A DNA stretch of 43,878 nucleotides, taken from positions 1 through 43,878 of the forward strand of contig JAAEZO010000006.1 in assembly GCA_018222825.1 (NCBI GenBank). The letters run 5' to 3'. Source of the DNA: Gammaproteobacteria bacterium (lineage in GTDB: Bacteria > Pseudomonadota > Gammaproteobacteria > Enterobacterales > Aeromonadaceae). The notes under the pieces were generated by a model. It ran no database searches and was not told the DNA's origin. It saw only the letters and a list, made by a program, of their open reading frames with translations. Below are positions 6,303 to 28,714 of this stretch, in pieces. Each line of letters opens with the position of its first letter. Position 1 is the stretch's first letter. Position numbers and translations under genes: made by a program.

Positions 6303-8927
6303 TTACCGCTCCGTTTGACGCGCCTGTTTCAGTTGATACAGCAGCGTCAATGCCTGGCGGGGGCTGAGTTCGTCCGGGTCCAGCTCGTCGAGCATCATCA
6401 GTGCCGGATCCGGCTCGTCTGCGGTGTCTAACAGCGGCAGCGACGACTGCGGATCATCATGTTGCGCCGGGAGCGGATTGGCGGCTGCGTTTTGACGTTG
6501 TTGCGCCTTCTCCCTAGGCCGATGACCACTTTCCAGCTCGGCCAGCTTCTGCCGGGCCAGGGTCAGCACCGCTTTCGGTACCCCGGCGAGGGCGGCGACC
6601 TGCAAGCCGTAAGAGCGGCTGGCCGCACCTTCCTGTACCGCATGCATAAAGGCGATGGTGTCGCCATGCTCTACCGCATCCAGATGCACGTTGGCCACCT
6701 CGGGCCACAAGCCCGCCAGCTCGGTCAGTTCAAAGTAATGGGTCGCGAACAGGGTATAGGCATGCAGTCGGTTGGCCAGCGCGTCGGCGCAGGACCAGGC
6801 CAGCGCCAGACCGTCGTAGGTGCTGGTGCCGCGACCGATTTCATCCATCAATACCAGACTGTGACGGCTGGCGTTGTTGAGAATATTGGCGGTTTCGGTC
6901 ATTTCGACCATGAAGGTGGAGCGGCCCGAGGCCAGATCGTCCGAGGCGCCGATACGGGTAAAAATACGGTCAACCTTGCCGATACGGGCGCGCTGGGCCG
7001 GTACGAAAGAGCCGATGTAAGCCATCAGCACGATCAGTGCCGTTTGCCGCATATAGGTGGATTTACCCCCCATGTTCGGCCCGGTGATCACCAGCATCTT
7101 GCGTTGCTGTGACATCGACAGCGGGTTGGCGATAAAGGGATCGGTCATCACCTGCTCGACGACCGGATGGCGACCTTCTTCTATATCGATTACCTCGTCA
7201 CCGGTCAGTTGCGGGCGGCAGTAATTCAGGCTTTCGGCCCGCTCGGCCAGGTTGGCGAACACATCCAGCTGGGCCAGGGCGATGGCACTGTGCTGCAACG
7301 GCTGCAATTGTTCCAGCAAGCGATCCAGCAACGCCTCGTACAGTTTCTTTTCCAGCGCCAGGCCCTTGCTCTGGGCGTTGAGCACCTTGTCTTCGTACTC
7401 TTTCAATTCGGGAATGAGGTAGCGTTCGTTGTTCTTCAGGGTCTGGCGACGCACATAATGCACCGGCACCAGATGGGCACTGGCCCGGCTGACCTCGATG
7501 TAAAAGCCATGCACCCGGTTGTAGGCCACCTTGAGGGTGGAGATGCCGGTGGCGGCTTTCTCGCGAGCTTCCAGCTCTTCCAGATAACGGTGAGCCCCGG
7601 CGGCCAGCTCGCGCAGCTCGTCCAGCTCGGGGCTGAAACCATCGCGAATAACGCCACCGTCGCGGATCAGCACCGGCGGGGTATCGACCACCGCCTGCTC
7701 CAGCAGCTCGGCCAGATCCGGAAATTGACCGATACGCGCGGCCAGAGCATCCAGGCAGGAAGGGGTGACTTCGCTCACCATGGCCTGAATGTCGGGCAGC
7801 ACCTGCAATGCCGAGCGCAGCCGGCTCAGATCCCGGGGGCGGGCCGAGCGCAACGCCAGTCGTGCCAGCACCCGCTCCATGTCTCCGACCTGCCGCAGGG
7901 GCTGGCGCAGATCTTCATGGCGGCCCTGCTCCATCAACAGGGCAATCATGTCCTGACGGCGGCTCAGATCCTCGATATCGCGGCTGGGCTGGTGGATCCA
8001 ACGCTTGAGCAGGCGGCTGCCCATGGGGGTGGCGGTATTGTCCAGCACCTCGGCCAGGGTGTTTTCCATGGTGCCGGACAGATTCAGCGTCAGTTCCAGA
8101 TTGCGGCGGGTGGCGGCGTCCATGATCACCATGTCCTGACTGCGTTCCAGGCTGACGCTGCCGATGTGGGGCAGGGCGGTGCGCTGGGTGTCTTTTACAT
8201 ATTGCAGCAGGCAACCGGCGGCACACAGCGCTGTGGTGGACTGCTCGACGCCGAAGCCCACCAGATCCCGGGTGCCGAATTGCTGGCACAGCAGGTGACG
8301 AGCGGTGCCCAGATCGAACTCCCATTCCGGGCGGCGGCGCAGCCCCTTGCGTTGCTCGATAAGCGCATACCAGTGAAAGCCTTCCGGATACAGCAGCTCG
8401 GCGGGCTGGGTGCGCTGCAGCTCGGCGACCAGCGCCTCTTCGGTGTCGAACTGGTTGAGCACGAAGCGGCCGGTGCTGACATCGATGATGCCGTAACCGA
8501 ATTGCTGACCATCGTGATACACCGCCGCCAGGCAGTTATCCTGCCGGTCGGCCAGCAGCGCCTCGTCCGACAGGGTGCCGGGAGTAATAATCCGTACCAC
8601 CTGGCGTTCCACCGGCCCCTTGCTGGTAGCCGGATCGCCAATCTGCTCGCAGATGGCCACCGATTCGCCCATCTGTACCAGCCGCGCCAGATAGTTTTCG
8701 GCCGCATGATGGGGCACCCCCGCCATGGGAATGGCGTTGCCGCCCGATTTGCCGCGCTTGGTCAGGGAAATATCCAGCAGGCGCGAGGCTTTCTTGGCAT
8801 CGTCATAGAACAGCTCATAAAAATCTCCCATGCGATAGAACAGCAGAATGTCCGGATGCTGTGCCTTCAGTGCCAGGTACTGCTGCATCATAGGTGTGTG
8901 TTGTTGATCTAACTCTTTAGTTTTCAC
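6303..8927 (-). CDS. mutS: DNA mismatch repair protein MutS (5' end replaced by element insertion)
   Basis: MutS recognises mismatches and starts methyl-directed repair with MutL. The 874-residue protein has the mismatch-binding GDFYELF motif (Phe36-x-Glu38), the Walker A loop [15 protein letters not shown] near residue 617, and [12 protein letters not shown] downstream. The start is GTG at 8927: an in-frame TGA lies immediately upstream and the next Met pair is in HTPMMQQ. Codons 2-9 (KTKELDQQ) are AT-rich, unlike the GC-rich remainder, and come from the integrated element. The original start (MNQDNTQHTPMM) is displaced to 28714. Full function is expected, because the residues before HTPMM are variable among MutS proteins, but promoter and translation initiation are now element-borne. 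Confidence 0.97.
8880..8903. other. attL: left attachment site inside the mutS 5' coding end
   Basis: This 24-base segment matches 28673-28696 at 20 of 24 positions, with an exact 8-base core TGCATCAT (8884-8891) that lies over the mutS ATG-ATG (Met-Met) codons. The AT-rich first codons of mutS and the intergenic region begin immediately to the right. Exact crossover bases within or next to the core cannot be fixed by eye. Confidence 0.85.
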
Positions 8928-9013
8928 TCACTTAACCACCGTTAGTATATGTTTATAAAGAGATTTTATAATATTTGGTTTCTCAAGTCGTCTCATGATG
9001 TGTCAGCTGATAT

Positions 9014-9047
9014 CACTAAAACCTATGTTTTAATATAGGTTTTAGTG
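9014..9047. repeat. Perfect 13-bp inverted repeat between mutS and integrase
   Basis: CACTAAAACCTAT (9014-9026) and its exact reverse complement (9035-9047) flank the 8-base spacer GTTTTAAT. It lies in the 231-base gap between the mutS start and the integrase. No T-run follows on either strand that would make it an obvious terminator. It could be an operator for int or mutS transcription or a recombination accessory site. A second, shorter inverted repeat (TGTACG/CGTACA) lies at 9053-9071. Confidence 0.75.
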
Positions 9048-9158
9048 TAGGTTGTACGTGTCATCCGTACACGCTATAGAAGAATACAAAGCGCAAGGTG
9101 AGCGGCTCGGCTTATTAGATGGTGGCCTAACAGAACAGAGCTAATAGGAGATTGTGAG

Positions 9159-10448
9159 ATGACCTTAGCGAAGAGTACCAAACCTCTGACAACAAGAACA
9201 ATTCAGACTATGAAACCGAGTAGTAGTGATCTTGCTGATGCTGGGGAAAATAGAGGCCTACGGGTAGCTTGCGGTAGTACAGGCCTTAAGACGTTCTTCT
9301 ACAGATACACTAGCCCTGAGACAGGAAAGCTAGTGCAGGCCAAAATTGGAAACTTTCCAGAGACCTCTTTGGCTGGAGCTCGCTCAATACTTCAAGATTG
9401 GAAGTTACTGCGAAGAAAAAAAATTTGCCCTGCCAATGAGATAAAAAGAAAAAAAAAGGAAGAGAAAGAACGTTCATTGCTCATTGAGCAAGGGCGTCAA
9501 ACCTTCACGGTACAAGATTTAATCGAACTGTATTTGACTAGTCAGATAGAAGACCAGAAGTTACCAAGTGGACAACTAAAGTCTGGTTCTCGTAAGCCTA
9601 AGGGACAGGTTGAAACTAGAAGAACTCTTTATATTGATGTCGTGCCATTCATGGGTTCACGTCCGGCAACAGATATTTTAAGAAAAGATGTGATCGAGAT
9701 GATCATGGGTATTGTCGCTAGAGGTGCAAATGTACAAGCCGGTAGTGTATTAAGAGAGCTGTCTGCAGCTTACGAATATGCCATTGGCATTGATAGGTTA
9801 CCTGACGATTTTGCTAACCCTGCGTTACTAGCAAAAGCAGGACTAAGGCAAGCGAAAATAAAGCTTACATCTAAGCCAGGTCGAAGAGTGTTATCTGATA
9901 AAGAAGTTATAAAACTAATTAAGTGGTTGCCGAAGTCAGATTATACAAATGCGCAAAAGAAAATCCTTCATTTAACATTGCTTACAGGATGTAGAACAGG
10001 AGAGCTTTGCAATGCACAGTGGAGAGACTTTGATGCCAAAGAAAAAACATTGCATATAAGAGAAACAAAGACAGCAACGGATCGTTATGTTCAGCTGCCT
10101 AGCCAAGCTGTTAATATAATAAAAAAATTACCTGTTGGTACAACAGATGCGATGTTTCCATCAAAAATAACCGGCTTACCAGTACAGCAAAAAAAGCTAT
10201 CTGAGCAATCATGGGTTATGAGAACGAAGGGAGTAATGCTAGATATTGATCACTGGACACCACACGATCTGAGACGAACAGTAAGAACGGGGTTGGCTCG
10301 CTTACAATGTCCGAATGAAGTAGCTGAAGCAATCCTTGGTCATGCTAGATCTGGAATTGAAGGGACTTATGACTTGCATCGTTATGAAAAGGAAAGTCGT
10401 CATTGGTTGCAGGTGTGGGCGAATTATCTTGATGAATTGGTCGTGTAA
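9159..10448 (+). CDS. Tyrosine-type site-specific integrase
   Basis: This 429-residue integrase probably catalyses insertion and excision of the element at mutS. The N terminus resembles the DUF4102/P4-integrase arm-binding domain (LRVACGSTGLKTFFYRYTSPETGK). The catalytic domain shows the first Arg in TGCRTGEL, the HDLRRT box (His-x-x-Arg), ILGHARSGIEGTY with Gly-His, and the nucleophile Tyr in EGTYDLHRY. An AGGAG at 9146-9150 sits 8 bases before the ATG. A Lys-rich stretch near residues 88-105 is encoded by A-runs of 8-9. Location next to the attachment site is typical of islands. The gene is AT-richer than the chromosome. Confidence 0.95.
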   Translation: MTLAKSTKPLTTRTIQTMKPSSSDLADAGENRGLRVACGSTGLKTFFYRYTSPETGKLVQAKIGNFPETSLAGARSILQDWKLLRRKKICPANEIKRKKKEEKERSLLIEQGRQTFTVQDLIELYLTSQIEDQKLPSGQLKSGSRKPKGQVETRRTLYIDVVPFMGSRPATDILRKDVIEMIMGIVARGANVQAGSVLRELSAAYEYAIGIDRLPDDFANPALLAKAGLRQAKIKLTSKPGRRVLSDKEVIKLIKWLPKSDYTNAQKKILHLTLLTGCRTGELCNAQWRDFDAKEKTLHIRETKTATDRYVQLPSQAVNIIKKLPVGTTDAMFPSKITGLPVQQKKLSEQSWVMRTKGVMLDIDHWTPHDLRRTVRTGLARLQCPNEVAEAILGHARSGIEGTYDLHRYEKESRHWLQVWANYLDELVV

Positions 10449-10518
10449 ATTGTAAGTAAGCTTTACTATATTTTTCTTATATGTGACTGAGGTTTACTTG
10501 ATGCTACACTTTAGGGTT

Positions 10519-10547: not shown

Positions 10548-10549
10548 TA

Positions 10550-11098
10550 TTATATTAAACCTTTGTAGTCTCCTGATATAGGGGGGTGAATGACGGAATA
10601 CTTATCTTCTAATATCTCTTGAAAAGCACTTTTTATAAAGGTTTTTGGCATGGTAGGTATATCATCTACTGATGAGTGGTGGCTTTTTTTTGCCTCCTTT
10701 CTTCCTTGCTTTTGTTTTGACTTTATTTTTTCATAGTTTTCAATAAGAAGCTCTAACACCTCACTCTGAGATGTATTCATCTCTTTCGCTATGTGCTCTA
10801 GTTTTTCCTTATGCTCTCTTCTTATCGATGCCGATAGCTGAACTTTACCTGAGTGGAGTTTGTGTTTCTTCTGGCGGCAGTGAGCCGTCATCTTCTGGAA
10901 TGTTACCCATCTTTCTAATGGGTAAGGATTACCTTGGGCTGGTTCGTTTGTGAATAAATTAATCAATGATTGTTGACAGGTTGATGCGTGGGGGAGTTCA
11001 AGCCCCTGTCTCTGAATGTAGCTGGTGGCGTGAGAAATCTGCTCATGCGTCGCGTTATTAATCCACTTCATTATCAGTCTTGGCTTGTCGTCACTCAT
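10550..11098 (-). CDS. Ribbon-helix-helix domain protein, probable element regulator
   Basis: The 182-residue product is not one I recognise by name. Its middle (LSASIRREHKEKLEHIAKE followed by MNTSQSEVLELLIENY, roughly residues 88-125) has the beta strand, helix, turn and helix pattern of RHH DNA-binding domains. The N-terminal half (KWINNATHEQISHATSYIQ) is predicted helical, and the C terminus is Lys-rich then Pro-rich. I chose ATG at 11098 (MSDDKPRL); a longer frame to 11164 has no support. It is divergent from the 487-residue gene at 11270, and two tandem dyad repeats lie between them. A repressor of the element or a replication or partition accessory protein is plausible. Confidence 0.65.
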   Translation of the reverse strand: MSDDKPRLIMKWINNATHEQISHATSYIQRQGLELPHASTCQQSLINLFTNEPAQGNPYPLERWVTFQKMTAHCRQKKHKLHSGKVQLSASIRREHKEKLEHIAKEMNTSQSEVLELLIENYEKIKSKQKQGRKEAKKSHHSSVDDIPTMPKTFIKSAFQEILEDKYSVIHPPISGDYKGLI

Positions 11099-11171
11099 GA
11101 GATTTCTCTGGGGGCTGTAAGTATGAAAGGCATTGTGCGGCTTGAAAGCAAAATAAGTCAACATTCATGTA

Positions 11172-11269: not shown

Positions 11270-12733
11270 ATGATGCCTCACTATCACTTGCTAAAAAATG
11301 GCTTCGATGATCTGGTGAAACTTACTCCAAAGTTGAGTGATGCAGTGCTTGAAAAGGGCTGGGGACTGCCCCCAGAAGCCAGGCTTTTCATTATCAGGTT
11401 GCTCGTGAGACATAGGGCATCGGTCTCATTCCCCGGTACAGTGAAGAGCTTGGTGAAGGAGTGCGACTCCGATGATCGGGCTGTGAGAAAAGGTATGGAC
11501 TACCTAAAGCAGGCAGGCTTGATTACCCAGGTAAGAGACTCACCGGGTAAAACTCTTTACCAAGTTAGCGGCTTCATTCAGCAGCATATAAGAAGCAAAT
11601 CACCGGCAGGCTCACCTCTGCCACCGTTATATGAACAGATAGACGCAGTGCTTTTCCCTGAGCATGGAGATAACCCTGAACGTGTGAAGCGGGGGGGGGT
11701 TAGTCGCGCCAGCAGATACCTTTTGGCCGTGATGCTGTCTTACTCCGATGCTTTAGGGATGGTCACTGGTGTGTCAAATGCTGAGTTACGCAAGCTGGCA
11801 GGTATGACGGAGCAGCGTTTAAGAGGGCATATTAAAAGTTTACTGGATAGCTCAATTCTTTGTGGTTACATGCCAGGGTTTAGTGCGTCTTCTGTGTTTG
11901 GTAAAGTGAAAAGTGAATTTCATTTATGGCTGCCTCATGCTGTGTTTGGGCATTGCTCTTTTAGGTATGGTTCTGTTGAGTATAAAGAAGAAAGACTTTC
12001 GACGTCGGATCTCAATGAAATTTCAGTTATAGACACAATGTACAGTTTGGCTAACTCCAAACCTTTAGAAAGTATTAAAAACAACTTGGCTCGGATAGCA
12101 TTCTTTGGTATTCACTTTTACGTAGAGGAGCTTCATTCTGTTATGAGTGAACAGAGTAGAGGTTATCTGCGATGGGCTGTGTTGGCTGTTACCTCTAATT
12201 TTATTCATGGAGGGAAATATTTTCTTAAGAATAGAGAACTACTTCCTATATGTGATTTCTTACTGGATAGACCTCTCGATGTAAAGTGTTATGAGCTAGA
12301 AGTGTGCTCTTTTATCGCTTGCAGGTTTATGAATGAAAAATCTGGTTACCGTTTTGATGAGTCTGATCTGGGAGACTTTAATTCTGAATCGCTTCAGTTA
12401 CGTTTCAAGCTGGCGTTGTTCATTTGTCGTGCATCCTTGATGTTGGCATCTAGAATAAATCGAGCTCTGGACGTTATTAGGGAAAGTAAGTCTGATTTTC
12501 GCTTTGTTATGCTCAGGCAAGGCGGAAGCGATCATGCCGTGAGGAACTTTTCTATTCAGTTCTTTAATCAAGAATACATGATGCTAACTACCAAAAAGTA
12601 CAGTGTGAAGATTTCCTCAAGTAGTGAGTATCTTGATAATGGACAAAAAGCCAGTAGGGAAATTGAGGTTTTTGAATTGTCCGAGGGGGTAAGTAAACTG
12701 CTTGCTAGCCGTCTTGATAACTTCAGAATGTAA
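11270..12733 (+). CDS. Unrecognised 487-residue element protein with N-terminal winged-helix-like region
   Basis: I do not recognise the family. Residues about 30-100 (PPEARLFIIRLLVRHRASV followed by DDRAVRKGMDYLKQAGLI) look like a winged-helix DNA-binding domain, and a second similar stretch (SNAELRKLAGMTEQRLRGHI) follows near residue 165. Two duplicated DNA-binding segments in a protein from an integrative element suggest a replication initiator or regulator, but this is inference. Two ATG codons lie in tandem at 11270 and 11273, after an AGGACAC ribosome-binding site. A run of nine G (11691-11699) lies inside the frame. The gene is AT-rich and is followed by the small alpA-type gene. Confidence 0.6.
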   Translation: MMPHYHLLKNGFDDLVKLTPKLSDAVLEKGWGLPPEARLFIIRLLVRHRASVSFPGTVKSLVKECDSDDRAVRKGMDYLKQAGLITQVRDSPGKTLYQVSGFIQQHIRSKSPAGSPLPPLYEQIDAVLFPEHGDNPERVKRGGVSRASRYLLAVMLSYSDALGMVTGVSNAELRKLAGMTEQRLRGHIKSLLDSSILCGYMPGFSASSVFGKVKSEFHLWLPHAVFGHCSFRYGSVEYKEERLSTSDLNEISVIDTMYSLANSKPLESIKNNLARIAFFGIHFYVEELHSVMSEQSRGYLRWAVLAVTSNFIHGGKYFLKNRELLPICDFLLDRPLDVKCYELEVCSFIACRFMNEKSGYRFDESDLGDFNSESLQLRFKLALFICRASLMLASRINRALDVIRESKSDFRFVMLRQGGSDHAVRNFSIQFFNQEYMMLTTKKYSVKISSSSEYLDNGQKASREIEVFELSEGVSKLLASRLDNFRM

Positions 12734-12782
12734 AAAACTACATCTTCGCCATATCTCATGAACCATATTAAAGGAGCTGGTC

Positions 12783-12965
12783 ATGAGATTTTTAAGACTT
12801 AAAGACGTTATCGATAAAACCGGACTTTCCCGTTCTACCATTTACCGGCAGATTGCTGAAGGTTGCTTCCCTAAGGGAGTCTCACTTGGAGGCAAGGCCA
12901 CAGGCTGGCTTGAAAGTGAAGTGGAAAACTGGATGTTGGAACGTTTGGCTATGAGGGATGGCTAA
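12783..12965 (+). CDS. AlpA family transcriptional regulator / excisionase-like protein
   Basis: This 60-residue protein is a MerR-like winged-helix protein of the AlpA family. It begins with MRFLRLKDVIDKTGLSRSTIY, continues RQIAEGCFPKGVSLG and ends with a GWLESEVENWMLERL helix, a near-perfect match to the family pattern. In P4-like and related islands AlpA proteins activate integrase or act as recombination directionality factors, so it may control excision from mutS. A strong AAAGGAG ribosome-binding site lies at about 12769-12775. The 185 bases to the next gene hold no other gene that I can support. Confidence 0.9.
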   Translation: MRFLRLKDVIDKTGLSRSTIYRQIAEGCFPKGVSLGGKATGWLESEVENWMLERLAMRDG

Positions 12966-13151
12966 GTTTTAGTCTTTTAAATATTCCCCTTTTGTTTTGG
13001 TATTTTTGGAGAGTGGAATGTTTTCTATTGTGTCGGGGGTCATCGATGCTTTTTTTGTTTTGTAGCGCTTGCTTCTCTTTGCTTTAGATAGCGCTCTTGT
13101 CGGTATAGTAATATTGGATAAATTAACTTAATTGATTTAGTAAGGATGGTT

Positions 13152-13796
13152 ATGAATAACGTAAGAGTTGAACTGAATACTAATTTAAGTAGATGGCATG
13201 GTCAGGAGTATAATGGCATGCCAGTACTAACTGGCAAAGGACCTTGTATCACAGAGTACCTTGATAAAACACATCAGGTAATTAACACTCATCGCGCATA
13301 CCACAGCCGAGTGTTTGCCATACGTCTGGATTTGAGGCTTCCAAATTTCGTGAACACTGAGTGTTACTCAAGCGATATGATAAACAGATTCATTTGTTCC
13401 CTAAGAGCCAAGCTGAAGCATTCCTATCAAAGCGGTCTGCGTCAAGGTCGTAGAATGCATGAGCCAGGTTTCAGGTACTTATGGGCAAGGGAATTGGGCC
13501 AAGATGGTCATCCACACTATCACTTACTACTACTGTTCAACCGGGATGCTTACTTTACGCTGGGGAACATGAGCAGCCCAGAGGGAAATCTTTACAGCAA
13601 GCTAAGCTCGGCATGGGCAAGTGCTCTCGATATAGAAGAGTATGATTCGAGAGGCCTGGTGAACGTTGCAGGTACGTTCCATTTGAAGTCTGGCGAAGAC
13701 ATAGGGCCGCTCTTCCTGGCGGCCAGTTACATATGCAAGGAACACTCCAAGGAGTTTGGTGCAAAACATCATGCCTTTGGTGGCTCCAGAGGATGA
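13152..13796 (+). CDS. Inovirus Gp2 / YagK-YfjJ-type HUH protein (Rep-like)
   Basis: The 214-residue protein has an HxHxH signature (HPHYHLLLL, His120/122/124) after WARELGQDG, followed by a Tyr-containing segment YICKEHSKEFG near residue 195. This is the layout of the inovirus-type Gp2/YagK family found in many integrative elements, related to HUH replication and relaxase proteins. Nicking at a replication or mobilisation origin is the expected role, but activity is inferred. I chose ATG 13152 because AAGGA (13142-13146) is 5 bases upstream; the ATG at 13146 overlaps that site. It follows alpA, as in similar elements. Confidence 0.82.
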   Translation: MNNVRVELNTNLSRWHGQEYNGMPVLTGKGPCITEYLDKTHQVINTHRAYHSRVFAIRLDLRLPNFVNTECYSSDMINRFICSLRAKLKHSYQSGLRQGRRMHEPGFRYLWARELGQDGHPHYHLLLLFNRDAYFTLGNMSSPEGNLYSKLSSAWASALDIEEYDSRGLVNVAGTFHLKSGEDIGPLFLAASYICKEHSKEFGAKHHAFGGSRG

Positions 13797-14042
13797 GCAT
13801 CTAGCGCACTTTCCCCATAAGGTCCCATTTAGCCCCTCTTTATCACTACACCCTGCTTCAAGCTCTGAATAGAACACTCTGAACGAGCCGGAAGCTGGAC
13901 GACGCTTAATGTCGCTTCCACCCCAAACACTGAATACACGCTGAACACAACTGCTGATGTGTGCATGGTCGCGCAGTGGCTGAATGCATCGGAAAGATGT
14001 AAAGTGATGCACATCCTGTCTCGTTATCCTGTTTGGTTGCTC
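13797..14042. promoter_or_regulatory. Leader region of the defence operon with repeated motifs
   Basis: This 246-base gap has no supported gene. It contains a repeated CTGAATA...CTGAAC pattern (about 13865-13890 and 13930-13947). It also holds an imperfect inverted pair, GATGTGTGCAT at 13956-13966 with ATGCACATC at 14007-14015. These could be operators for the RHH protein encoded just downstream. I could not identify a convincing -35/-10 pair. Confidence 0.35.
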
Positions 14043-14240
14043 ATGAAGTCTGTTAGAACCACGGTTTCCTTATCCAAGGAACAATACGAATCGCTTTGCC
14101 ACTTGGCCGAGGTCAGTGACTTATCCATTTCTCGGGTAATTCGTCAGGCAGTGGGCGAATTCCTGTCCAGGCATGAAGGAAGCCGGTTAGACCCCATCAG
14201 TACAGAAACACCATCAGTGATGAAGGAAGAGCAGAAATGA
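14043..14240 (+). CDS. CopG-like ribbon-helix-helix protein
   Basis: From ATG 14043 the product has 65 residues. MKSVRTTVSLSKEQYESL gives an N-terminal beta strand and helix, and SDLSISRVIRQAVGEFL supplies the second helix of a typical RHH/CopG dimeric DNA-binding domain. Its stop overlaps the ATG of the SNF2 helicase (ATGA), so it heads the operon. The likely role is autoregulator of the defence genes, by analogy with RHH antitoxins and repressors. An in-frame extension to 13959 lacks support. Toxin-antitoxin function is unlikely because no small toxin gene follows. Confidence 0.75.
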   Translation: MKSVRTTVSLSKEQYESLCHLAEVSDLSISRVIRQAVGEFLSRHEGSRLDPISTETPSVMKEEQK

Positions 14241-20617: not shown

Positions 20618-23470
20618 ATGAGCACGGATATAAAAACGGCTAACCAGCTCAGCGCCAGGTTGTCGCTGCGCAAGCCCCAGGATAAATCTCTGCAGATCCT
20701 TTGCCGGATACTGGAGCAACTCAAGCTCGATAAAGACCCGGATCTTAATCACTGGCTGAAGGTCATCAAGGAAGAGCAGCCTACCGTCAAAGGCTTTGAG
20801 CGTAGCTTCCCGTCCCTGTGTTTTGCCCTGGCGACGGGGGTGGGCAAAACCCGGCTGATGGGGGCCATGATCGCCTGGCTGTACCTTACCGGCCGTAGTC
20901 GTCATTTCTTTGTGCTGGCGCCGAACCTGACCATCTACGAAAAGCTGAAACAGGACTTTTTGCCGGGCTCGCCCAAGTATGTGTTTCAGGGTATACCCGA
21001 GCTGTCCCAGACGCCGCCTGTGCTGGTGACCGGTGATGACTATCAGGAAGGGCGTGGCGTGCGCCTGGACTATGCGGTAACCGAACGGATGACCGGTGAC
21101 TTGTTCGCTACCGAAACGGCCCCCCATATCAATATTTTTAACGTGTCCAAGATCAATGCCCTGGACAACAAAAAGGGAGCGGATAAGTCCAAGACCGCCA
21201 AGATCCGCCGTATTCAGGAGTACATCGGCGATTCTTATTTCAGCTACCTGGCCGAGCTGCCGGATCTGGTGGTATTGATGGACGAGGCACACCGCTACTA
21301 CGCCAGCGCCGGAGCTAAGGCCCTGAACGACCTTAAACCGGTGTTAGGCATTGAGCTGACTGCCACCCCCAAGACAGTGGGTGCCAACCCCAGGGACTTC
21401 AGAAACATCATTTATCACTACCCGCTTGCCAGCGCCTTGAATGACGGCTATGTGAAGATACCTGCTGTGGCCACCCGTAAAGACTTTAGAGCGGCCAGTT
21501 ATAATCAGGATCAGCTGGAACGTATCAAGCTGGAAGATGGCATTCACCATCACGAATATGTGAAAACCGAGCTGGCCAGTTATGCTAATAACACCGGTAG
21601 ACCCTCGGTTAAGCCTTTTATGCTTGTGGTTGCCCAAGACACACTCCATGCCGATGAGCTTAAGAGCAGGATGGAAGATGACAGCTTCTTCGAGGGGGCC
21701 TACAAGGGCAAGGTGATCACCGTTCATTCCAATCAGGGAGCGGAAGAGTCAGAGGAAACCACCCAACGACTGTTGGCGGTAGAGCACGATAAAGACACCG
21801 AGATAGTTATTCACGTCAACAAGCTGAAAGAAGGCTGGGACGTCACCAACCTGTACACCATAGTGCCACTGCGGGCCTCTGCCTCGGAGATTCTGACCGA
21901 GCAGACCATAGGCCGTGGTCTTCGCCTACCTTATGGCAAGCGTACTGGTGTAGAGGCGGTCGATCGGTTGACGATTATCGCCCATGACCGTTTTCAGGAG
22001 ATTATCGACCGGGCCAATGACAAGGAGTCCGTCATTAAAAAGACGCTCTATATCGGTGCCGAAGATGATGAAAATGGTATTCCCGAAAAGAAGCCGCAGA
22101 CCATGGTTGTGCCTTCCATGGTGGAAATCCTGTTGGGACGTCGGCCTACAGAACTGGACGGTAGAGAGATTCATGAAAAGCCCCCAGCAGGTTATGGCGA
22201 TAATGTAGCAGCAGAAAAGCCCGCTTTGCCTTCGCTGCTTAATACGGAATCCGATCGCAAGGTAGCGGAGCTGACGTTCAAGGTTGTTAGTGAAGAGGCG
22301 AAGCGGCTGACCAGTAGTAAAGAGCTGAACAGTAATGAAATGAAAGAAACGGTGACCAAGCGCGTACAGCAAGCCATGCGCGAATGGTTTCCGCCGGTAT
22401 CTCCTCAGGTACAAAAAAATGAGAATGCAGGGGGAGAGACTGCTGCCGAGCAGTTGCCGTTACCTCGGATGGACGATAGCGCCATCAATGATCTGGTGAT
22501 AGCCATTACCGAGAAATTGGTAGAGCACACCATCGATATTCCCCAGATTGTGATCCTGCCAACCCGGGAAGTGAACTATGGCTTTGCGGATTTTGAGTTG
22601 TCAGGGCTTGAGCGAGTTGCCTTGAAACCTGGCAGCAAAGAGATGCTGCTACAGCATCTGGAAGACAACCGCATCAGTAGTATCAGCTGGGAAGAAGGCG
22701 GGGATACAGAAGCTCGCCCAGCAGATTACCTGGTACGTTCATTGATCGATCACGATGAGATCGATTATGACCAACATGCAGCAGCCTTGTATAAACTGGC
22801 CGGGCAAATGGTGACACATTTGCGTAGCTACTTGAGTGAAGAAGACGCAGAGAACCTGCTGAAGACTCAGGGTCAGCAGTTGGCCGACTTTATCTGGGCA
22901 CAGTTGCGAGCCAATATGTGGACGACGCCCACCGATTATGTGGGCAGAATCACTCAGGGATTCGATATTCTACGGCCTGCAACCTTTAACTACGCCAGAG
23001 ACGAGCAGCCTCGGGATTTTCGTTCACCCATTCAACCGGGTGAGAAAAGCAAAATACGGCATATGCTGTTCACCGGATTTACCAAGTGCTGCTACCCCTA
23101 CCAGAAATTCGACTCCGCAGACGGAGAGTGGCGTCTGGCGCAAATTCTGGAAAACGAGCCTTCGGTACTCAAGTGGATGAAGCCAGCCCCCGGCCAGTTC
23201 AAAATCGAGTATGCCAACGGCCAGAATTACGAGCCAGATTTTGTGGTGGAAACGGAAACCGAGTATCTGCTGATGGAACCTAAGAAGGCAACAGAAGTGG
23301 ATTCACCGGAAGTTCAGGCCAAAGCCAGGGCTGCCGTGCGTTGGTGTAACTACGCCAATGAGCACGCCAAGCTACACGGTGGTAAAAATTGGCACTATGT
23401 ATTGATCCCGCATGACCGTATAGAGCTGAGCCGTTCAGTGAAAGGACTCAAACAAGACTTTGAAGTTTAA
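20618..23470 (+). CDS. res: Type III restriction-modification ATPase/endonuclease subunit Res
   Basis: Res is the helicase-nuclease subunit that cleaves DNA when two oppositely oriented unmethylated sites are engaged. The 950-residue protein has Walker A LATGVGKTRL (residues 71-80), DEAHRYYAS near 222, motif III-like LTATPKT, and motif VI EQTIGRGLRLPYGKRTG. Near the C terminus, EPDFVVETETEYLLMEPKK (about residues 870-889) is a PD-(D/E)xK nuclease core with Asp and Glu-x-Lys. Only 12 bases separate it from mod, with an AAGGA site upstream. The 3' end is followed by an AT-rich gap with an imperfect hairpin at 23486-23515. Confidence 0.93.
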   Translation: MSTDIKTANQLSARLSLRKPQDKSLQILCRILEQLKLDKDPDLNHWLKVIKEEQPTVKGFERSFPSLCFALATGVGKTRLMGAMIAWLYLTGRSRHFFVLAPNLTIYEKLKQDFLPGSPKYVFQGIPELSQTPPVLVTGDDYQEGRGVRLDYAVTERMTGDLFATETAPHINIFNVSKINALDNKKGADKSKTAKIRRIQEYIGDSYFSYLAELPDLVVLMDEAHRYYASAGAKALNDLKPVLGIELTATPKTVGANPRDFRNIIYHYPLASALNDGYVKIPAVATRKDFRAASYNQDQLERIKLEDGIHHHEYVKTELASYANNTGRPSVKPFMLVVAQDTLHADELKSRMEDDSFFEGAYKGKVITVHSNQGAEESEETTQRLLAVEHDKDTEIVIHVNKLKEGWDVTNLYTIVPLRASASEILTEQTIGRGLRLPYGKRTGVEAVDRLTIIAHDRFQEIIDRANDKESVIKKTLYIGAEDDENGIPEKKPQTMVVPSMVEILLGRRPTELDGREIHEKPPAGYGDNVAAEKPALPSLLNTESDRKVAELTFKVVSEEAKRLTSSKELNSNEMKETVTKRVQQAMREWFPPVSPQVQKNENAGGETAAEQLPLPRMDDSAINDLVIAITEKLVEHTIDIPQIVILPTREVNYGFADFELSGLERVALKPGSKEMLLQHLEDNRISSISWEEGGDTEARPADYLVRSLIDHDEIDYDQHAAALYKLAGQMVTHLRSYLSEEDAENLLKTQGQQLADFIWAQLRANMWTTPTDYVGRITQGFDILRPATFNYARDEQPRDFRSPIQPGEKSKIRHMLFTGFTKCCYPYQKFDSADGEWRLAQILENEPSVLKWMKPAPGQFKIEYANGQNYEPDFVVETETEYLLMEPKKATEVDSPEVQAKARAAVRWCNYANEHAKLHGGKNWHYVLIPHDRIELSRSVKGLKQDFEV

Positions 23471-23600: not shown

Positions 23601-24503
23601 ATGAACCCTGCAATTGTGAAGTTATTTCCTACAGTGATGCAGCTTCTTGATGAAGCAAGTAAAACAGAAGCAGGTCAGAAATATTTAGATAAAGGAAAGA
23701 GAGTTGTTGAGGTTTCACTCCCTTATATAAAAGATGCATCGGAGCTTGCAATCGACTTTTTATCTACAGATGTGGGTAAAGAGTTGTTTGGAGATGTTAA
23801 GAATATAAAATTATCTAAAAAATTAGACGTAGTCGATCGTGGCCTTAGTTTACCAAGTAGTTATGATAAGAATCAGAGTGCATCAATAAAACAAAAAATA
23901 ACGGATGGATTTGAAATCACAAAAGGGCAGAGTGAGATACTTTTCCTTTCAAATTCAATAAATTACTTCATAGATAGTCATAAGTTCAGGGTGGGCATAG
24001 ATAGAAATATATCTTACGCCTTACAGTACGATGTTAATGCAGTTACTGAATATTTAAAGAAAAGAAGCGATATTCGTTTTCCTGGATATCTTCTTCATCA
24101 ACTGCAAAGCTTGTCTAGCACTATTCGTGAATTGAATATTTTTTACGCATCTCTTTGTAATGATGGTTATGTTTCTGATTATAATGAAGAAGATCTTTTA
24201 GCTAAACTAAATAAAAAATATGGAGCTGAAGGGAAAGCTAGTGAAAGTATAGGTTATTATCCTTGTGATATGATGCTGTATGCAAAGCGATGTTTAGGTG
24301 ATAGTGTCAATCAAAATAAGCCATCTCCAAGTGGTCGTTTCTTTGCTGGTAAAATTTTTGATAAGGGTGAGGTAGCTAGTGGAGTGCATGACGCATTGGA
24401 AATATTGAATGATGAGTTGATTTTTAATGAGAAGCTTGAGAGTAATATTGTGGAGAAATTAAAGATTTTTCCGAATAATAAGCTGCTTATTGAGTCGTTT
24501 TGA
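23601..24503 (+). CDS. Unrecognised AT-rich 300-residue cargo protein
   Basis: No known domain is recognised. The protein is rich in Lys, Ile, Asn and Ser, with a helical N-terminal half (PTVMQLLDEASKTEAGQKYL) and no signal peptide or clear membrane segment. It has two central Cys (ASLCNDG and YYPCDMM) and an SPSGRFFAGKIF segment. It lies 130 bases after res in the same direction, but its base composition is much lower in GC than the operon's, suggesting separate acquisition. It is preceded by an AAAAAAGG ribosome-binding site close to ATG 23601. A role as an accessory defence, toxin or effector gene is possible only by location. Confidence 0.6.
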   Translation: MNPAIVKLFPTVMQLLDEASKTEAGQKYLDKGKRVVEVSLPYIKDASELAIDFLSTDVGKELFGDVKNIKLSKKLDVVDRGLSLPSSYDKNQSASIKQKITDGFEITKGQSEILFLSNSINYFIDSHKFRVGIDRNISYALQYDVNAVTEYLKKRSDIRFPGYLLHQLQSLSSTIRELNIFYASLCNDGYVSDYNEEDLLAKLNKKYGAEGKASESIGYYPCDMMLYAKRCLGDSVNQNKPSPSGRFFAGKIFDKGEVASGVHDALEILNDELIFNEKLESNIVEKLKIFPNNKLLIESF

Positions 24504-24519
24504 TATTATTGTTTTTTTG

Positions 24520-24543: not shown

Positions 24544-24563
24544 AAGTCATATTTTATCGTTAC

Positions 24564-24905
24564 TTAAAACCAGAACCTCATCTTTTCCGCGGCTAGTTCT
24601 TTTATTTCTTCATCTACATACAACGAAACTGAAGCGATAGCGGCGGTCAGTACGATCAGATCGTCGGTGTAACCTATGCCGGGAAGTAAATCCGGGATCG
24701 CATCAATGGGTAAGATAAAGTAAGCCAAAGCACTGTAGACGACGGTTTTTGCCCATAATGGTGTTTCTGGTTTCTGAGCTGCATAGTAAAGCCACAAGCA
24801 TTTACGAATAACTTCGGTGCCTGTCGTTTTCAGGCTGTGGCGAACTTTATCCCAGAAGCGTTGCTCACTGTAGATGTTGGCCAGTGCATGTTTATCTTGT
24901 TGCAT
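24564..24905 (-). CDS. YkvA-family (DUF1232) small membrane protein
   Basis: The 113-residue protein contains the DUF1232 core AKTVVYSALAYFILPIDAIP followed by DLLPGIGYTDDLIVL, with one or two membrane segments. The family's function is unknown. The ATG at 24905 has a good AAGGAG ribosome-binding site. It ends the minus-strand module after radC, with 26 bases between the genes, so it is probably co-transcribed with it. Confidence 0.88.
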   Translation of the reverse strand: MQQDKHALANIYSEQRFWDKVRHSLKTTGTEVIRKCLWLYYAAQKPETPLWAKTVVYSALAYFILPIDAIPDLLPGIGYTDDLIVLTAAIASVSLYVDEEIKELAAEKMRFWF

Positions 24906-24931
24906 GCTTACTCCTTTCTGTTTTGTGTTGA

Positions 24932-25429
24932 TTAGATAAGGCCGCGTGCGGCCAGTGATACGCAGCCTTCCATACCGACCACCACATGATCGAGGACGCG
25001 AATATCAACCAGGTTGAGTGCATCTCGCAGGCGAAGGGTGATACTGGTATCGGCTTTGCTGGGTTCGGGATCACCGGACGGATGGTTGTGCACCAGAATG
25101 AGTGCGGCTGCGTTGTAGGCTAAAGCCCGCTTTACCACTTCACGCGGGTAGACGCTGGCGGCATCGATGGTGCCTCGGAACAGCTCTTCAAAGCCCAAAA
25201 TACGATGCTGGTTGTCGAGAAACACGGCTCCGAACACTTCGTGCTCGTAGTGTTGCAATAGAGTTTTCAGATACTCGAAGGCAAGCTCTGGCTGGTTTAT
25301 GACGCGACCTTTGGCTAATCGCCGACGAGCCAGTTTTTGGGCCATGTTTAGGATATCGGCTTCTGTCAGTAGTTCGGGTGCCAGGTAGGTACCGCGTTGT
25401 TCGCCAGCAATAAATTTCTTCTGATTCAT
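24932..25429 (-). CDS. radC: RadC-like JAB/MPN-domain protein
   Basis: This 165-residue short RadC lacks the N-terminal helix-hairpin-helix of chromosomal RadC. It carries a complete JAMM metal-binding motif, HNHPSGDPEPSKAD (His-x-His-x7-Ser-x2-Asp, about residues 115-128), after EVFGAVFLDNQHRILG. Such proteins are frequent in mobile elements next to recombination genes; the name is historical and a true repair role is doubted. The start ATG follows a GGAG site. A terminator-like hairpin lies immediately upstream, so it may have its own promoter or depend on read-through from the Cys-cluster gene. Confidence 0.92.
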   Translation of the reverse strand: MNQKKFIAGEQRGTYLAPELLTEADILNMAQKLARRRLAKGRVINQPELAFEYLKTLLQHYEHEVFGAVFLDNQHRILGFEELFRGTIDAASVYPREVVKRALAYNAAALILVHNHPSGDPEPSKADTSITLRLRDALNLVDIRVLDHVVVGMEGCVSLAARGLI

Positions 25430-25445
25430 GGTGATCTCCAGGCAT

Positions 25446-25469
25446 AAAAAACGCCGCTCAAGGGAGGCG
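25446..25469 (-). terminator. Possible terminator between the Cys-cluster gene and radC
   Basis: On the minus strand CGCC...GGCG with a two-base bulge and short loop is followed by six T residues. It lies just after the stop of the 25490-26392 gene. Confidence 0.55.
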
Positions 25470-25489
25470 CATTAATGGGTGGGTAAGGT

Positions 25490-26392
25490 TCACTGAACGG
25501 TGCCCAGCTTGTTGGTCAGAAGGGTAGCCCGGACGAGCTCCTGTGGTTGAGGTTTGTCACCGGACTTGCTGGTAGTATCGCTCTCCGTTTCTGGATAAAA
25601 CTCTTCCAGCAACAAGGGGATTTCTTCTTCGCCATCTTCAAACTGGCCGTTTTTCAATAGGTGCCATGCGACCTTCTCCAAGCTAGCTGCATCCACACCA
25701 GCCTGGCGATGGCGTTCAGCCTCTTGTTGAGCCGTGCGCACGGCATCTGTCAGACTCTCTTCTTCCCGCAGGGTCAGATCGACGTAGTACACCGGGGTTC
25801 GATATGACTGGGTGGTGCTCTTGGCTCGCAGCCGTAATTGCAGTGGTAGGTGCCGGGTATGGCCTCCACTGGCAGCCTCAAAATAGCTCAGCCTGGCTGC
25901 CAGGGTACGCACCGAGTTGTAGCCGGTAGTACGGAAGATGAAGCTACCCAGCTCATCATTTTGGCCATCAATCTGAACATTTAAACGGCCATAGAGCTTG
26001 CAGCCTTGTTCATAGGCAAAGCGGCATCGCTCGGGGCTTGGGCAGGGCACTTCTTCGATGCCTCCGTCACCGGCTCGTTTTGCCATTTCACCGTTACCCA
26101 CACAAATAGGGCGGCCTGTGCTGCGATCAAAGGCGCTGTATTCGGCGCGTAGATTGAGATCGCTGTCGTTGAACAAGACTTTGACCGGAATGGAGCGGAT
26201 CTTGCCGTTGGCTGCGCCTTCGGTATACCGCTGATGCAGGGGATGCAGCATCCAGCCATTGCGGTTCTGGATCTGAGTGGTGAGAGTAAAACTGTCGTCT
26301 TTCTCCGGTAACCATTTATCGTTTTTATTGACCAGCTTACCGATGCTGATCCGTCCGATAATGGGCGGTGTAATGGCTAGTCCTTTGATCAT
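25490..26392 (-). CDS. Mobile-element Cys-cluster protein ('hydrolase or metal-binding' type)
   Basis: The 300-residue product resembles phage and ICE proteins usually labelled 'hydrolase or metal-binding protein', sometimes likened to recombination directionality factors. A Cys cluster, CPSPERCRFAYEQGC (Cys-x5-Cys-x7-Cys), follows RPICVGNGEMA, giving four Cys that could bind zinc or an Fe-S cluster. The ATG at 26392 overlaps the stop of the yqaJ gene upstream (ATGA), so translation is coupled. The adjacent YqaJ exonuclease and DUF932 genes recur with it in other elements. Function is not established. Confidence 0.75.
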   Translation of the reverse strand: MIKGLAITPPIIGRISIGKLVNKNDKWLPEKDDSFTLTTQIQNRNGWMLHPLHQRYTEGAANGKIRSIPVKVLFNDSDLNLRAEYSAFDRSTGRPICVGNGEMAKRAGDGGIEEVPCPSPERCRFAYEQGCKLYGRLNVQIDGQNDELGSFIFRTTGYNSVRTLAARLSYFEAASGGHTRHLPLQLRLRAKSTTQSYRTPVYYVDLTLREEESLTDAVRTAQQEAERHRQAGVDAASLEKVAWHLLKNGQFEDGEEEIPLLLEEFYPETESDTTSKSGDKPQPQELVRATLLTNKLGTVQ

Positions 26393-27372
26393 GATGAGCT
26401 CCTTTGTTGTTGCACCATAAAGCGACGAGTACCAGATACAGTTTTGCTGCAGTGCTGCAGCCATTCGGGGTGGTGGTTGGTGAGCTTTTCCATATCAGGC
26501 TGGGTGCGATCTCGGCTCTTCTTCCAGCTGATCTTGCCCTCCTGAAAGACTGCTGCGCTGGCTGTGCCTAGCGAGACTTGAAGTTGTTGTTTGAGTTGGG
26601 CTTCACGGGCTTCTGCTTTTTCTTTCTGTTGGCGGGCATTCAGAAAATGATTGAACAGTTCGTTCATTTCCGATGATTCGGACAGATCCAGGGTTTGACT
26701 GTCATCCTGCGGATACATAGATTGCAGTGCCTGAGCAGCATCATCCGAGCCATCTGGAGCGGGTTGAGTATCTTCGGTAACGTGTTGCCAGAAGGCGGCT
26801 TCTCGTTGGATGAGATCGGCAATTTTGTTATCGTCCCGGTTCACCCGGTAGATACGAAAATCCTGACCGGCGATTAACACTGCAACATCGGCCCAGGCAT
26901 GACCGGTCACGGCCAGTTGATGCAATACCTGGCACTGGTAGGCGAGGGGAATACCTTGCTCCCACTGGGGAGCTGAATGGTAGCCAGCCGTTTTTATTTC
27001 CAGGGTGCCGATACCATCGGCATGGCCCAGTACTTCACGATCCAGGTTGGCTAGCATAAAGGGATGCTCGGCGTGCTGGAGTACCGCATTGACCCGGCGT
27101 ACCTTCAAACCCGTTCGTTTGGCGTATACATAAGCCAGTACCGGCTCCAGGGTTGTCCCCCAGAATACCGCTTCGTTATCTGACAGGTCGGTGGCAGGGC
27201 GACGTTCCGTCTTCTCCAGCCACAGTGATAACGGGCTTTTGTATCGAGATAATCCCAGAGCCACGGCGGCATCGGAAGATCCGATCCCGGATTGACGAAC
27301 CTGAAGCCATTGTTCGTGGGTGAGAGTCTTGGTGTCGGCCAGGCGGAAGGCATTACCGTAACGTGTTTTCAT
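26389..27372 (-). CDS. YqaJ-type viral recombinase exonuclease
   Basis: The 327-residue protein has the YqaJ/lambda-exonuclease-like core: SGIGSSDAAVALGLSRYKSP near residues 29-48, WGTTLEPVLA, MLANLDREVLG and LEIKTA (Asp...Glu-x-Lys of the PD-(D/E)xK fold). After the catalytic part come a low-complexity acidic linker and a Gln-rich coiled coil (about residues 245-275). Such 5'-3' exonucleases generate single-stranded tails for annealases of the RecT/Bet type, but no annealase gene is visible nearby. The ATG follows a GGAG site. Confidence 0.88.
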   Translation of the reverse strand: MKTRYGNAFRLADTKTLTHEQWLQVRQSGIGSSDAAVALGLSRYKSPLSLWLEKTERRPATDLSDNEAVFWGTTLEPVLAYVYAKRTGLKVRRVNAVLQHAEHPFMLANLDREVLGHADGIGTLEIKTAGYHSAPQWEQGIPLAYQCQVLHQLAVTGHAWADVAVLIAGQDFRIYRVNRDDNKIADLIQREAAFWQHVTEDTQPAPDGSDDAAQALQSMYPQDDSQTLDLSESSEMNELFNHFLNARQQKEKAEAREAQLKQQLQVSLGTASAAVFQEGKISWKKSRDRTQPDMEKLTNHHPEWLQHCSKTVSGTRRFMVQQQRSSS

Positions 27373-27390
27373 GATGAGTCTCCTAAACGC

Positions 27391-27426
27391 ATAAGGCCCT
27401 GCTGGCGAGAACCAGCAGGGCCTTAT
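27391..27426 (-). terminator. Long perfect hairpin between the DUF932 and yqaJ genes
   Basis: Arms ATAAGGCCCTGCTGG (27391-27405) and the exact complement (27412-27426) enclose a 6-base loop. It sits in the 72-base gap between two co-directional minus-strand genes. No T-run follows, so it may attenuate, terminate or stabilise the message. Confidence 0.7.
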
Positions 27427-27444
27427 GGGGTAAGTTCGTAAGAG

Positions 27445-28398
27445 TTAGTGCAGTAAGGCGATGGCCTGATCGTAGGTTTTTTGCTTGAGCTGTGCTCCGT
27501 TGCCAAACCAGGCTGAATCGAGACGATAGTCTTGGTTACGAGCCCGGCGATGGTGGTCTACAAACTCGGTCATGGCATTGACCAGGCCCCATGCTGTGTT
27601 CTTGCTGGAGGCGAGGTCGGCGCCCATACCGGCACCGTCGTACAGACTGAGCAGTTGCTGCATGGGCTTGGACGGGGTGAGGTCTGGGTGTTCAGCACAG
27701 GGATCATCCAGTACTTCGGCAAAGAAACGATGAGCCTCTTCGGGGGATATCGGACGTTGAGAAAGCTCCTTCAGATTACGCATGAAGTCATCCCAACTGG
27801 ACAGTCCCAGCCCCAGCGCTTCCTTTACCTGCTTGGGATCAAACACGGTGGAATGGGGCACTTTAACTGCGCCAGCTTTGTTGTTAACCGCGACCTGCAG
27901 TGTGTTGTTACAGACCACTCGTACCGAGGTGAACTGAGCGGTTGTACATAGGGTGCCGTCACAGCTGGTGGCCAGCAGCAGATAGGCCTTGATGTTGTCA
28001 TTACCATTAAGGCGGGCACTCTGTCCGGTTTTAGCTAGAGCCCATAGCTTGCGACCGCCTTTGAGTACCCCCGCTGTTTCCAGCTCGAAGCCTCCGGCCT
28101 GCACCAGATCTTTATAGAAGTGCAGCACTTCTTGAGGCTGGACGACCTTGTAACGATTGGACACCACTGACAGTGGCGCCAGGGTATCTGAGCGATACAG
28201 TACTTGAGCGCTATCGTGATGACGTAGGTAAAGACCGTCGTCGGCAGCATTGAACATGACATCGCTCTGCTTGATGGACCAATCCATACCGGCTTCTTTG
28301 AGCCAGACCGACAAGGGTTGCTTGCTGGTGAGTTGGTTGCCCAGACCATGCCAGGGCGTCTGGCCAAGGTAGGCCATGGATTCAACAAGGTGAGACAT
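27445..28398 (-). CDS. DUF932 family protein
   Basis: The 317-residue product matches the DUF932 family (phage/plasmid-like protein TIGR03299 group). The N terminus MAYLGQTPWHGLGNQL is a hallmark, with SNRYKVVQPQEVLHFYKDL near residue 80 and VRVVCNNTLQVAV in the centre. Members are encoded by large phages, plasmids and ICEs, often near recombination genes; their function is unknown. The ATG has a GGAG site 8 bases upstream. It is the first gene of the minus-strand module and lies downstream of the displaced mutS promoter region. Confidence 0.9.
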   Translation of the reverse strand: MSHLVESMAYLGQTPWHGLGNQLTSKQPLSVWLKEAGMDWSIKQSDVMFNAADDGLYLRHHDSAQVLYRSDTLAPLSVVSNRYKVVQPQEVLHFYKDLVQAGGFELETAGVLKGGRKLWALAKTGQSARLNGNDNIKAYLLLATSCDGTLCTTAQFTSVRVVCNNTLQVAVNNKAGAVKVPHSTVFDPKQVKEALGLGLSSWDDFMRNLKELSQRPISPEEAHRFFAEVLDDPCAEHPDLTPSKPMQQLLSLYDGAGMGADLASSKNTAWGLVNAMTEFVDHHRRARNQDYRLDSAWFGNGAQLKQKTYDQAIALLH

Positions 28399-28651
28399 AG
28401 CGTGTACTCCATTTATGCTAGGTTATTACAGCTTTAATGAATGAGAGATTGTGGAGCCGGGTTAGCTCGGTATCGATTCATCAAGGTGATATGTACCTGA
28501 AGATAAATAGAATTGATTTACATTAGCGCTATTATTACTTGGGTGGTGGGAAAGATTTCAACAGAGTGATGTTCAATATAGAGGTTAAGTCTGAATAGCA
28601 GAAAAAGTGTAGGTTATATTAAAGGTTTTTCTTTGAGGTTATAAAAAGTTC
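28399..28651. promoter_or_regulatory. AT-rich right end of the element, no gene
   Basis: No gene is supported here. AGTGTAGGTT at 28606-28615 exactly repeats 9044-9053 near the left end, and further AGGTTATA-like motifs occur at 28611 and 28636. These are candidate integrase arm-binding sites. Promoters for the DUF932 module must lie here or in the displaced mutS leader. Confidence 0.45.
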
Positions 28652-28714
28652 TTATAAATCAATTGTTAAACACTGATGCATCATGGGGGTATGTTGGGTG
28701 TTGTCTTGATTCAT
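28652..28714 (-). pseudogene. mutS: Displaced 5' end of mutS (remnant)
   Basis: On the minus strand, from ATG 28714, the sequence reads M-N-Q-D-N-T-Q-H-T-P-M-M and then diverges to HQCLTIDL and a TAA stop. The first 12 residues are a typical MutS start. Joined at the attachment core to the chromosomal copy they give [19 protein letters not shown]. This is therefore the original mutS beginning, cut off from its gene by the element. Confidence 0.9.
28673..28696. other. attR: right attachment site
   Basis: Matches attL 8880-8903 at 20 of 24 positions, with the exact core TGCATCAT at 28677-28684. To its right the native mutS leader and GC-rich chromosome begin. Confidence 0.85.

What the first reader, a model, noticed from the sequence alone, without database searches (positions are those of the whole stretch)
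8880..28714. Element inserted inside the mutS start, replacing the first codons of MutS
The right junction keeps the original mutS beginning (minus strand, ATG at 28714, MNQDNTQHTPMM). At the left junction, the element supplies GTG at 8927 and MKTKELDQQ before HTPMM. Joining 8880 to 28685 in silico restores one continuous mutS reading [19 protein letters not shown]. This fixes the element at about 19.8 kb and shows that it targets a mismatch-repair gene without breaking its frame. An excision-integration cycle would toggle the MutS N terminus and its expression, which could alter mutation rate.
Basis: partly seen in the sequence, partly recalled or inferred. Interest (0 to 1): 0.88.

Follow-up and report, generated by a model that had tools for sequence, protein, structure and literature searches.

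The report
Mobile island swaps MutS's first codons
A mobile DNA island carrying likely anti-phage genes has inserted inside the start of the mismatch-repair gene mutS and supplies new first codons and a new upstream region, and relatives of it do the same in other bacteria including some E. coli.

Summary
A 19,793-bp island lies between ATGATGCA repeats (8884-8891, 28677-28684). Host flanks joined there align through the junction to an element-free congener whose mutS starts exactly as the displaced right end. The island has a tyrosine integrase, an AlpA protein, and type III restriction-modification and HEC-01-like genes. Its left end supplies the GTG start, 12 codons and about 230 bp upstream of mutS.

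The strategy is widespread: 31 of 37 loci with integrase relatives hold mutS, 30 within 310 bp. In E. coli, 15 of 15 genomes with a near-full-length match have it at mutS; a second integrase occurs in 133 of 5,426, 6 of 6 sampled at mutS. One left end is 99.6% identical in two genera whose mutS bodies are 79% identical, so MutS starts travel with islands.

mutS-specific integration at this site was published in 2008 (Burkholderia); 5'-end replacement is known for dusA. Toggling of MutS expression or mutation rate is not shown. New: breadth, exchanged MutS starts, stacking, and a 10-bp-phased motif array upstream.

The parts
6303..8927 (-). mutS, 874 aa, intact; first 12 codons (8892-8927) supplied by the island, start GTG
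8884..8891 (-). attL core octamer ATGATGCA (codons MMQ of HTPMMQQY)
28677..28684 (-). attR core octamer ATGATGCA
28677..28714 (-). displaced native mutS start (MNQDNTQHTPMM), identical over 38 bp to the empty site of congener G015
8976..9015 (-). 10-bp-phased array of four TGANA motifs in the new mutS upstream region, found in most relatives; candidate binding site of the excision factor (inferred)
9016..9054 (.). repeats of CCTACAC/CCTATA type next to int; candidate integrase arm sites (inferred by eye from the alignment)
9159..10448 (+). tyrosine integrase, Arm-DNA-bind_3 type
10550..11164 (-). RHH_1-containing protein
11270..12733 (+). HTH protein of unknown function (weak HTH_36, below cut-off)
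12783..12965 (+). AlpA-family protein, 60 aa; candidate excision factor
13146..13796 (+). YagK/YfjJ C-terminal domain, Rep-like (PF23343 also hits)
13959..14240 (+). RHH protein
14237..17092 (+). SNF2-family helicase (DrmD-like, below the NCBIfam cut-off)
17089..18180 (+). AAA ATPase, HEC-01A-like
18111..18821 (+). DUF4276, HEC-01B-like
18839..20605 (+). type III restriction-modification methyltransferase
20618..23470 (+). type III restriction enzyme
23601..24503 (+). protein without a family match at E 0.001 in Pfam, PADLOC or NCBIfam
24564..24905 (-). DUF1232
24932..25429 (-). RadC-like JAB protein
25490..26464 (-). Gp3-like family protein
26389..27372 (-). YqaJ / lambda-exonuclease family
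27445..28398 (-). DUF932 / TIGR03299 phage/plasmid-like protein

Best explanation
The window holds an integrated mobile genomic island. Its tyrosine integrase uses the codons of the conserved MutS motif HTPMMQQY as attB, and strand exchange falls in or next to ATGATG (read from junctions). Integration cuts mutS from its native upstream region and start (shown). The left arm of the island carries a ready-made replacement: a start codon and 12 codons ending HTP in frame (shown), and about 230 bp up to the divergent int gene, which must now hold the mutS promoter if mutS is transcribed (inferred; promoter not shown). MutS therefore stays full length with a new first dozen residues. Excision would restore the native start (inferred). 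A phased motif array in this stretch and the island's AlpA protein are the likely excision controls (inferred). The site serves as a landing place for islands that carry defence genes and is reused, so islands stack and leave their MutS starts behind.
For: Empty site found and aligned through the junction. Right ends in four E. coli islands of this integrase type equal the K-12 mutS start up to ATGATGCA. G010 carries a related island with its own host-specific right end. In the genus 4 of 23 genomes have the integrase at E up to 1e-60, and 4 of 4 have it beside mutS. Of 37 integrase-relative loci, 31 hold mutS, 30 of them within 310 bp. In E. coli 15 of 15 near-full-length matches lie at mutS. 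E. coli VREC0864 and Enterobacteriaceae RIT693 share a 240-bp left end at 99.6% with mutS bodies at 79.2%; the VREC0864 body is 98.4% identical to K-12. In 40 of 40 distinct left ends the mutS frame has ATG/GTG before any stop, against 0 and 3 of 40 in the other two frames. AlpA E = 1.1e-22.
Against: No promoter is demonstrated: one sigma-70-like site in the window stretch against 0.9 expected by chance, none in E. coli L073. No empty or circular form in the own assembly. Four gammaproteobacterial relatives of the integrase have no mutS in their locus, and three E. coli records hold a partial match (25% of the query) to integrases not annotated at mutS (H16-H18). Several of the 31 loci hold only integrase fragments. 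The 40 left ends are related, so the frame counts are not independent.
Confidence: 0.9

Rival explanations
1. The island is a switch for mismatch repair: the phased array that controls excision overlaps the new mutS promoter, so integrase/AlpA occupancy and excision change MutS levels and mutation rate.
For: The array lies about 50-90 bp upstream of the GTG. Two or more phased units occur in 32 of 40 distinct island left ends and in 0 of 23 native mutS upstream regions. The native upstream region is physically displaced. SpyCI at mutL is a precedent for island control of mismatch repair (PMC3430984, abstract and passages).
Against: With a relaxed motif two or three units also occur in four integrase relatives that do not lie at mutS, so the array probably belongs to the recombination machinery rather than to mutS control. 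The motif was chosen after seeing the alignment. The predicted promoter is not above chance. No expression data.
Confidence: 0.18
2. The new start is a neutral by-product: the island happened to contain an open frame at attP and mutS is expressed by chance or poorly.
For: MutS leaders differ even among island-free relatives; promoter prediction is weak. For the second E. coli integrase family the frame test is weaker: 6 of 6 in frame, but also 4 of 6 in one other frame.
Against: Frame and start are kept in 40 of 40 left ends of the first family against 0 and 3 of 40 in the other frames; mutS is annotated full length in the six E. coli carriers of this type looked at; the leader moves almost unchanged between genera.
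Confidence: 0.08
3. The right-end copy is a partial duplication of mutS or an assembly error, not a displaced start.
For: The genome is a fragmented draft (330 contigs).
Against: Same architecture in G010 and in complete E. coli chromosomes with exact native starts at the right end.
Confidence: 0.01

Closest known systems
mutS-specific genomic islands GI8c (B. pseudomallei MSHR305) and Bt-GI4 (B. thailandensis E264), PMC2612704
   Same: Site-specific recombination at the same mutS codons; 15-bp repeat ACGCCGATGATGCAG = TPMMQ
   Different: Betaproteobacteria; GI8c is a putative prophage; section 13 and the passages read describe no replacement start or upstream region, and the integrase was not compared here
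dusA-associated islands, PMC4482086
   [quoted passage not shown] most of these islands replace the 5' end with their own sequence, with putative promoters (section 18)
   Different: Different gene; membership of the dusA integrase family not tested here
SpyCI chromosomal islands at mutL, PMC3430984
   Same: Mobile island at the 5' end of a mismatch-repair gene
   Different: There integration cuts mutL from its promoter and gives a mutator phenotype; here an intact start and frame are supplied
fhlA-mutS island hotspot of Enterobacteriaceae, PMC7232297
   Same: Same chromosomal place in E. coli; the paper also mentions integrases there in some strains
   [quoted passage not shown] an att site inside mutS is read here for two E. 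coli integrase families. Whether SPI-1 itself came in that way was not tested

Membership tests
mutS-targeting site-specific island (as in PMC2612704) | Direct repeat at the TPMMQ codons of mutS flanking the island | tested here: met
   ATGATGCA repeats at 8884-8891 and 28677-28684, 21 of 28 bases alike around them; shorter and less perfect than the published 15-bp repeat
mutS-targeting site-specific island (as in PMC2612704) | Integrase related to that of GI8c / Bt-GI4 | not tested
   Those integrases were not fetched
5'-end-replacing gene-targeted island (dusA type) | Island supplies a new 5' end of the target gene in frame | tested here: met
5'-end-replacing gene-targeted island (dusA type) | Promoter in the supplied 5' end | tested here: inconclusive
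   at or below chance level
Tyrosine-integrase genomic island | Integrase next to attL, direct repeats, displaced target copy, empty site in relatives | tested here: met
Tyrosine-integrase genomic island | Excision to a circle | not testable with these tools
   own assembly shows neither attB nor attP, which does not decide it
SpyCI-like mutator switch | Integration silences mismatch repair | not testable with these tools
   no expression data; the mutS frame is kept
Prophage | Capsid, terminase or tail genes | tested here: not met
   no such Pfam match among 17 island proteins scanned; PHROGs not run, and small frames were not all scanned

The most novel reading that the evidence does not exclude
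Islands of at least two integrase families have turned the MutS start into a shared landing pad in gammaproteobacteria. Each brings its own mutS leader, in the first family with an integrase/AlpA control array that overlaps the promoter region, so the cell's mismatch repair, and with it mutation rate and the barrier to foreign DNA, is set by which island is resident and by its excision state. In E. coli this would also replace the native mutS leader, which from recall (Chen and Gottesman 2017; not held in the library) is an Hfq target.
Probability: 0.18. Interest if true: 0.85.

Novelty: new variant of a known kind. Interest (0 to 1): 0.55.

Why it matters
[quoted passage not shown] The junctions read here put an attachment site inside the first conserved codons of mutS, used by two integrase families in E. 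coli, which makes the origin of the hotspot directly testable. It also means some natural strains carry exchanged mutS leaders, so mismatch-repair regulation may differ between strains of one species for reasons unrelated to vertical descent.

Tried and rejected
Assembly error or duplication: rejected because complete E. coli chromosomes show the same architecture. Prophage: no structural genes in the Pfam scans. DrmD for the SNF2 helicase: score 669.6 against a cut-off of 950, so not filed as DISARM. Promoter scan: no signal above chance. A mutS-specific role of the phased array: weakened because weaker forms occur in non-mutS relatives. Right end of the older island in G012: not found in L092 by pattern. 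The right ends of L074 and L089, and of most islands, were not fetched. Counting E. coli occupancy with the native leader failed, because the right end of an island keeps that leader (carrier RM10740 still matches at 99%). G008's odd start (VKATEQTQ) has no clear integrase of this family beside it and stays unexplained. The first left-end tests had left out L061 and L062; one search repeats them on all 40 distinct left ends of the first family, and its numbers are used. Papers: searches bearing on integration at mutS were. The E. coli defence-hotspot paper PMC10121019 (passages) has no 'mutS' or 'ygbA' in its main text; its table of 41 hotspots was not seen, so this place may be among them.
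Full report
What was checked. The window is contig C48 of a draft genome of 3.19 Mb in 330 contigs. mutS is intact on the minus strand (6303-8927). Its start GTG is preceded directly by an in-frame TGA, so translation cannot come from further upstream. GC falls from 0.53-0.64 outside to about 0.39-0.56 between the junctions.

The junctions. Around the left and right junctions 21 of 28 bases agree, with an uninterrupted ATGATGCA. Joining the host flanks at this octamer gives a site that aligns to congener G015 through the junction, 90.9% over 1,637 columns. The 38 bases from the displaced ATG to the octamer are identical in G015. The island is 19,793 bp. Of 22 congeners, 17 have the native type of start, 4 an island-type start and 1 an unresolved one. 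In G010 both ends of the island read ATGATGGTT, where most hosts have ATGATGCAG, so exchange falls in or next to ATGATG and the integrase tolerates that change.

Anatomy. Pfam, PADLOC and NCBIfam scans give an Arm-DNA-bind_3 tyrosine integrase, an AlpA protein of 60 aa, a Rep-like YagK/YfjJ protein, a defence block and a right-end block. The defence block is a SNF2 helicase, HEC-01A/B-like proteins and type III restriction-modification. The right-end block is DUF1232, RadC, Gp3-like, YqaJ and DUF932. The island in G010 has a matching order, with 91-95% protein identity for the helicase, the AAA protein and the restriction enzyme. The genes between int and the helicase are more diverged (29-76%), the methyltransferase matches over only 231 aa at 84%, and the simple frame-picking used there recovered no DUF4276 or Gp3-like frame in G010. 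The two mutS bodies are 77% identical in DNA, while the island DNA aligns at 81-90% in its four long pieces, which points to transfer between species.

Breadth. In the genus, 4 of 23 genomes have the integrase at E up to 1e-60, each beside mutS. A scan of GTDB genomes with the integrase gave 37 loci, several with integrase fragments only. Of these, 31 hold mutS and in 30 it lies within 310 bp of the integrase match; L062 has it 2.3 kb away. Four gammaproteobacterial loci hold no mutS, and two archaeal hits at 26-27% identity are irrelevant. In three of those four the gene next to int, reading away from it, is another conserved gene: a DTW-domain gene, a T2SSE ATPase gene and an RNA pseudouridine synthase gene; their att sites were not worked out. 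The fourth, L066, is unclear.

In E. coli 15 of 5,426 genomes have a match over at least 80% of the enterobacterial query and 15 of 15 are at mutS; three further records match a quarter of it in other integrases. A second integrase (WP_000858985; 21% identity over 132 aa to the first) matches 133 of 5,426 genomes. Six of six opened lie at mutS, as do the ten best rows; the rest were not opened. Annotated cargo includes type I restriction-modification genes in ET915, methylase and specificity-subunit genes in OW1E2 and MB06233, TrlF in VREC0864, and DRT3 and ABC-three-component genes in 1916D18. Right ends read in five E. coli islands (L073, L087, L088, L095 and, for the second family, L096) keep the native K-12 start up to at least ATGATGCA. 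Among 50,697 phage records one matches the integrase at E up to 1e-30, at 29% identity.

The MutS start belongs to the island. E. coli VREC0864 and Enterobacteriaceae RIT693 share the 240 bp before HTPMM at 99.6%, though their mutS bodies are 79.2% identical; VREC0864's body is 98.4% identical to K-12, and blastn finds no match between its leader and K-12's. Over 40 distinct left ends of the first family the mutS frame holds ATG or GTG before a stop in 40, against 0 and 3 in the two other frames; for six left ends of the second family the counts are 6, 0 and 4. The sequences are related, so these are not independent trials. One congener (G012) shows stacking: the right end of its present island abuts a relic left end with another island-type start and a 20-residue integrase remnant. 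Another (G018) keeps an island left end, 90% identical over 583 bp (mutS part included) to that of G016, without a detectable integrase in the 10 kb available.

Regulation. Alignment of left ends shows repeats of the CCTACAC/GTTACAC kind near int and, nearer mutS, a 10-bp-phased array of TGANA motifs. With the strict motif 32 of 40 distinct left ends have two or more phased units and 24 have three or more; 0 of 23 native mutS upstream regions have two. Dinucleotide shuffles of 38 left ends average about one unit. The motif was chosen after seeing the alignment, so these values are descriptive. A relaxed motif gives two or more units in 39 of 40 island left ends and 1 of 23 native regions, without a shuffle control, and two or three units in the four non-mutS relatives. 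The array is therefore most likely part of the recombination control. AlpA acts as excisionase in Shewanella prophage CP4So (PMC5148205, passages read); that AlpA binds this array is inference. The sigma-70-like site reading towards mutS is not above chance.

Known and new. mutS-specific integration at the same codons was reported in 2008 (PMC2612704: section 13 and passages read). 5'-end replacement with putative promoters was reported for dusA islands (PMC4482086, section 18 and passages). Island control of mismatch repair is known for SpyCI at mutL (PMC3430984, abstract and passages). [quoted passage not shown] The hotspot table of PMC10121019 was not seen. Searches listed no paper that, as far as its title, abstract or the passages seen show, describes the exchange of MutS starts by islands in gammaproteobacteria; most subscription papers are not in that library.

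Verdict. The anatomy and the site-specific mechanism are secure. Mismatch-repair switching is an open, testable idea. The replaced residues lie before the conserved HTPMM motif, so any effect should come through expression.

Noticed in passing
L078 about 16925-17260 (G012): Two islands stacked at mutS: the right end of the present island abuts a relic left end (start VKNKENLSS-HTPMM) with a 20-residue integrase remnant.
   Followed up: partly
L053, L056, L058 upstream of int: Relatives of the integrase lie next to the 5' ends of other conserved genes (DTW-domain gene, T2SSE ATPase gene, RNA pseudouridine synthase gene), suggesting target switching within one integrase family.
   Followed up: partly
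28655-28714; also L073, L087, L088, L095, L096, L093 (G010), L078 (G012): The displaced mutS frame runs into the island and meets a stop 1 to 12 codons after MM in 8 of 8 right ends read, leaving a short open frame behind the native upstream region.
   Followed up: partly
L015/L082 (G008): mutS with an unusual start (VKATEQTQ-HTPMM) and no clear integrase of this family beside it.
   Followed up: partly
L096 (E. coli 1916D18): Second, very different integrase at the same mutS site, with DRT3 reverse transcriptases and ABC-three-component genes as annotated cargo.
   Followed up: partly
24564-28398: Right-end genes DUF1232, RadC, YqaJ and DUF932 also lie at the right end of the G010 island; frames that begin like DUF932 and YqaJ lie at the right end in G012 (judged by eye).
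   Followed up: partly
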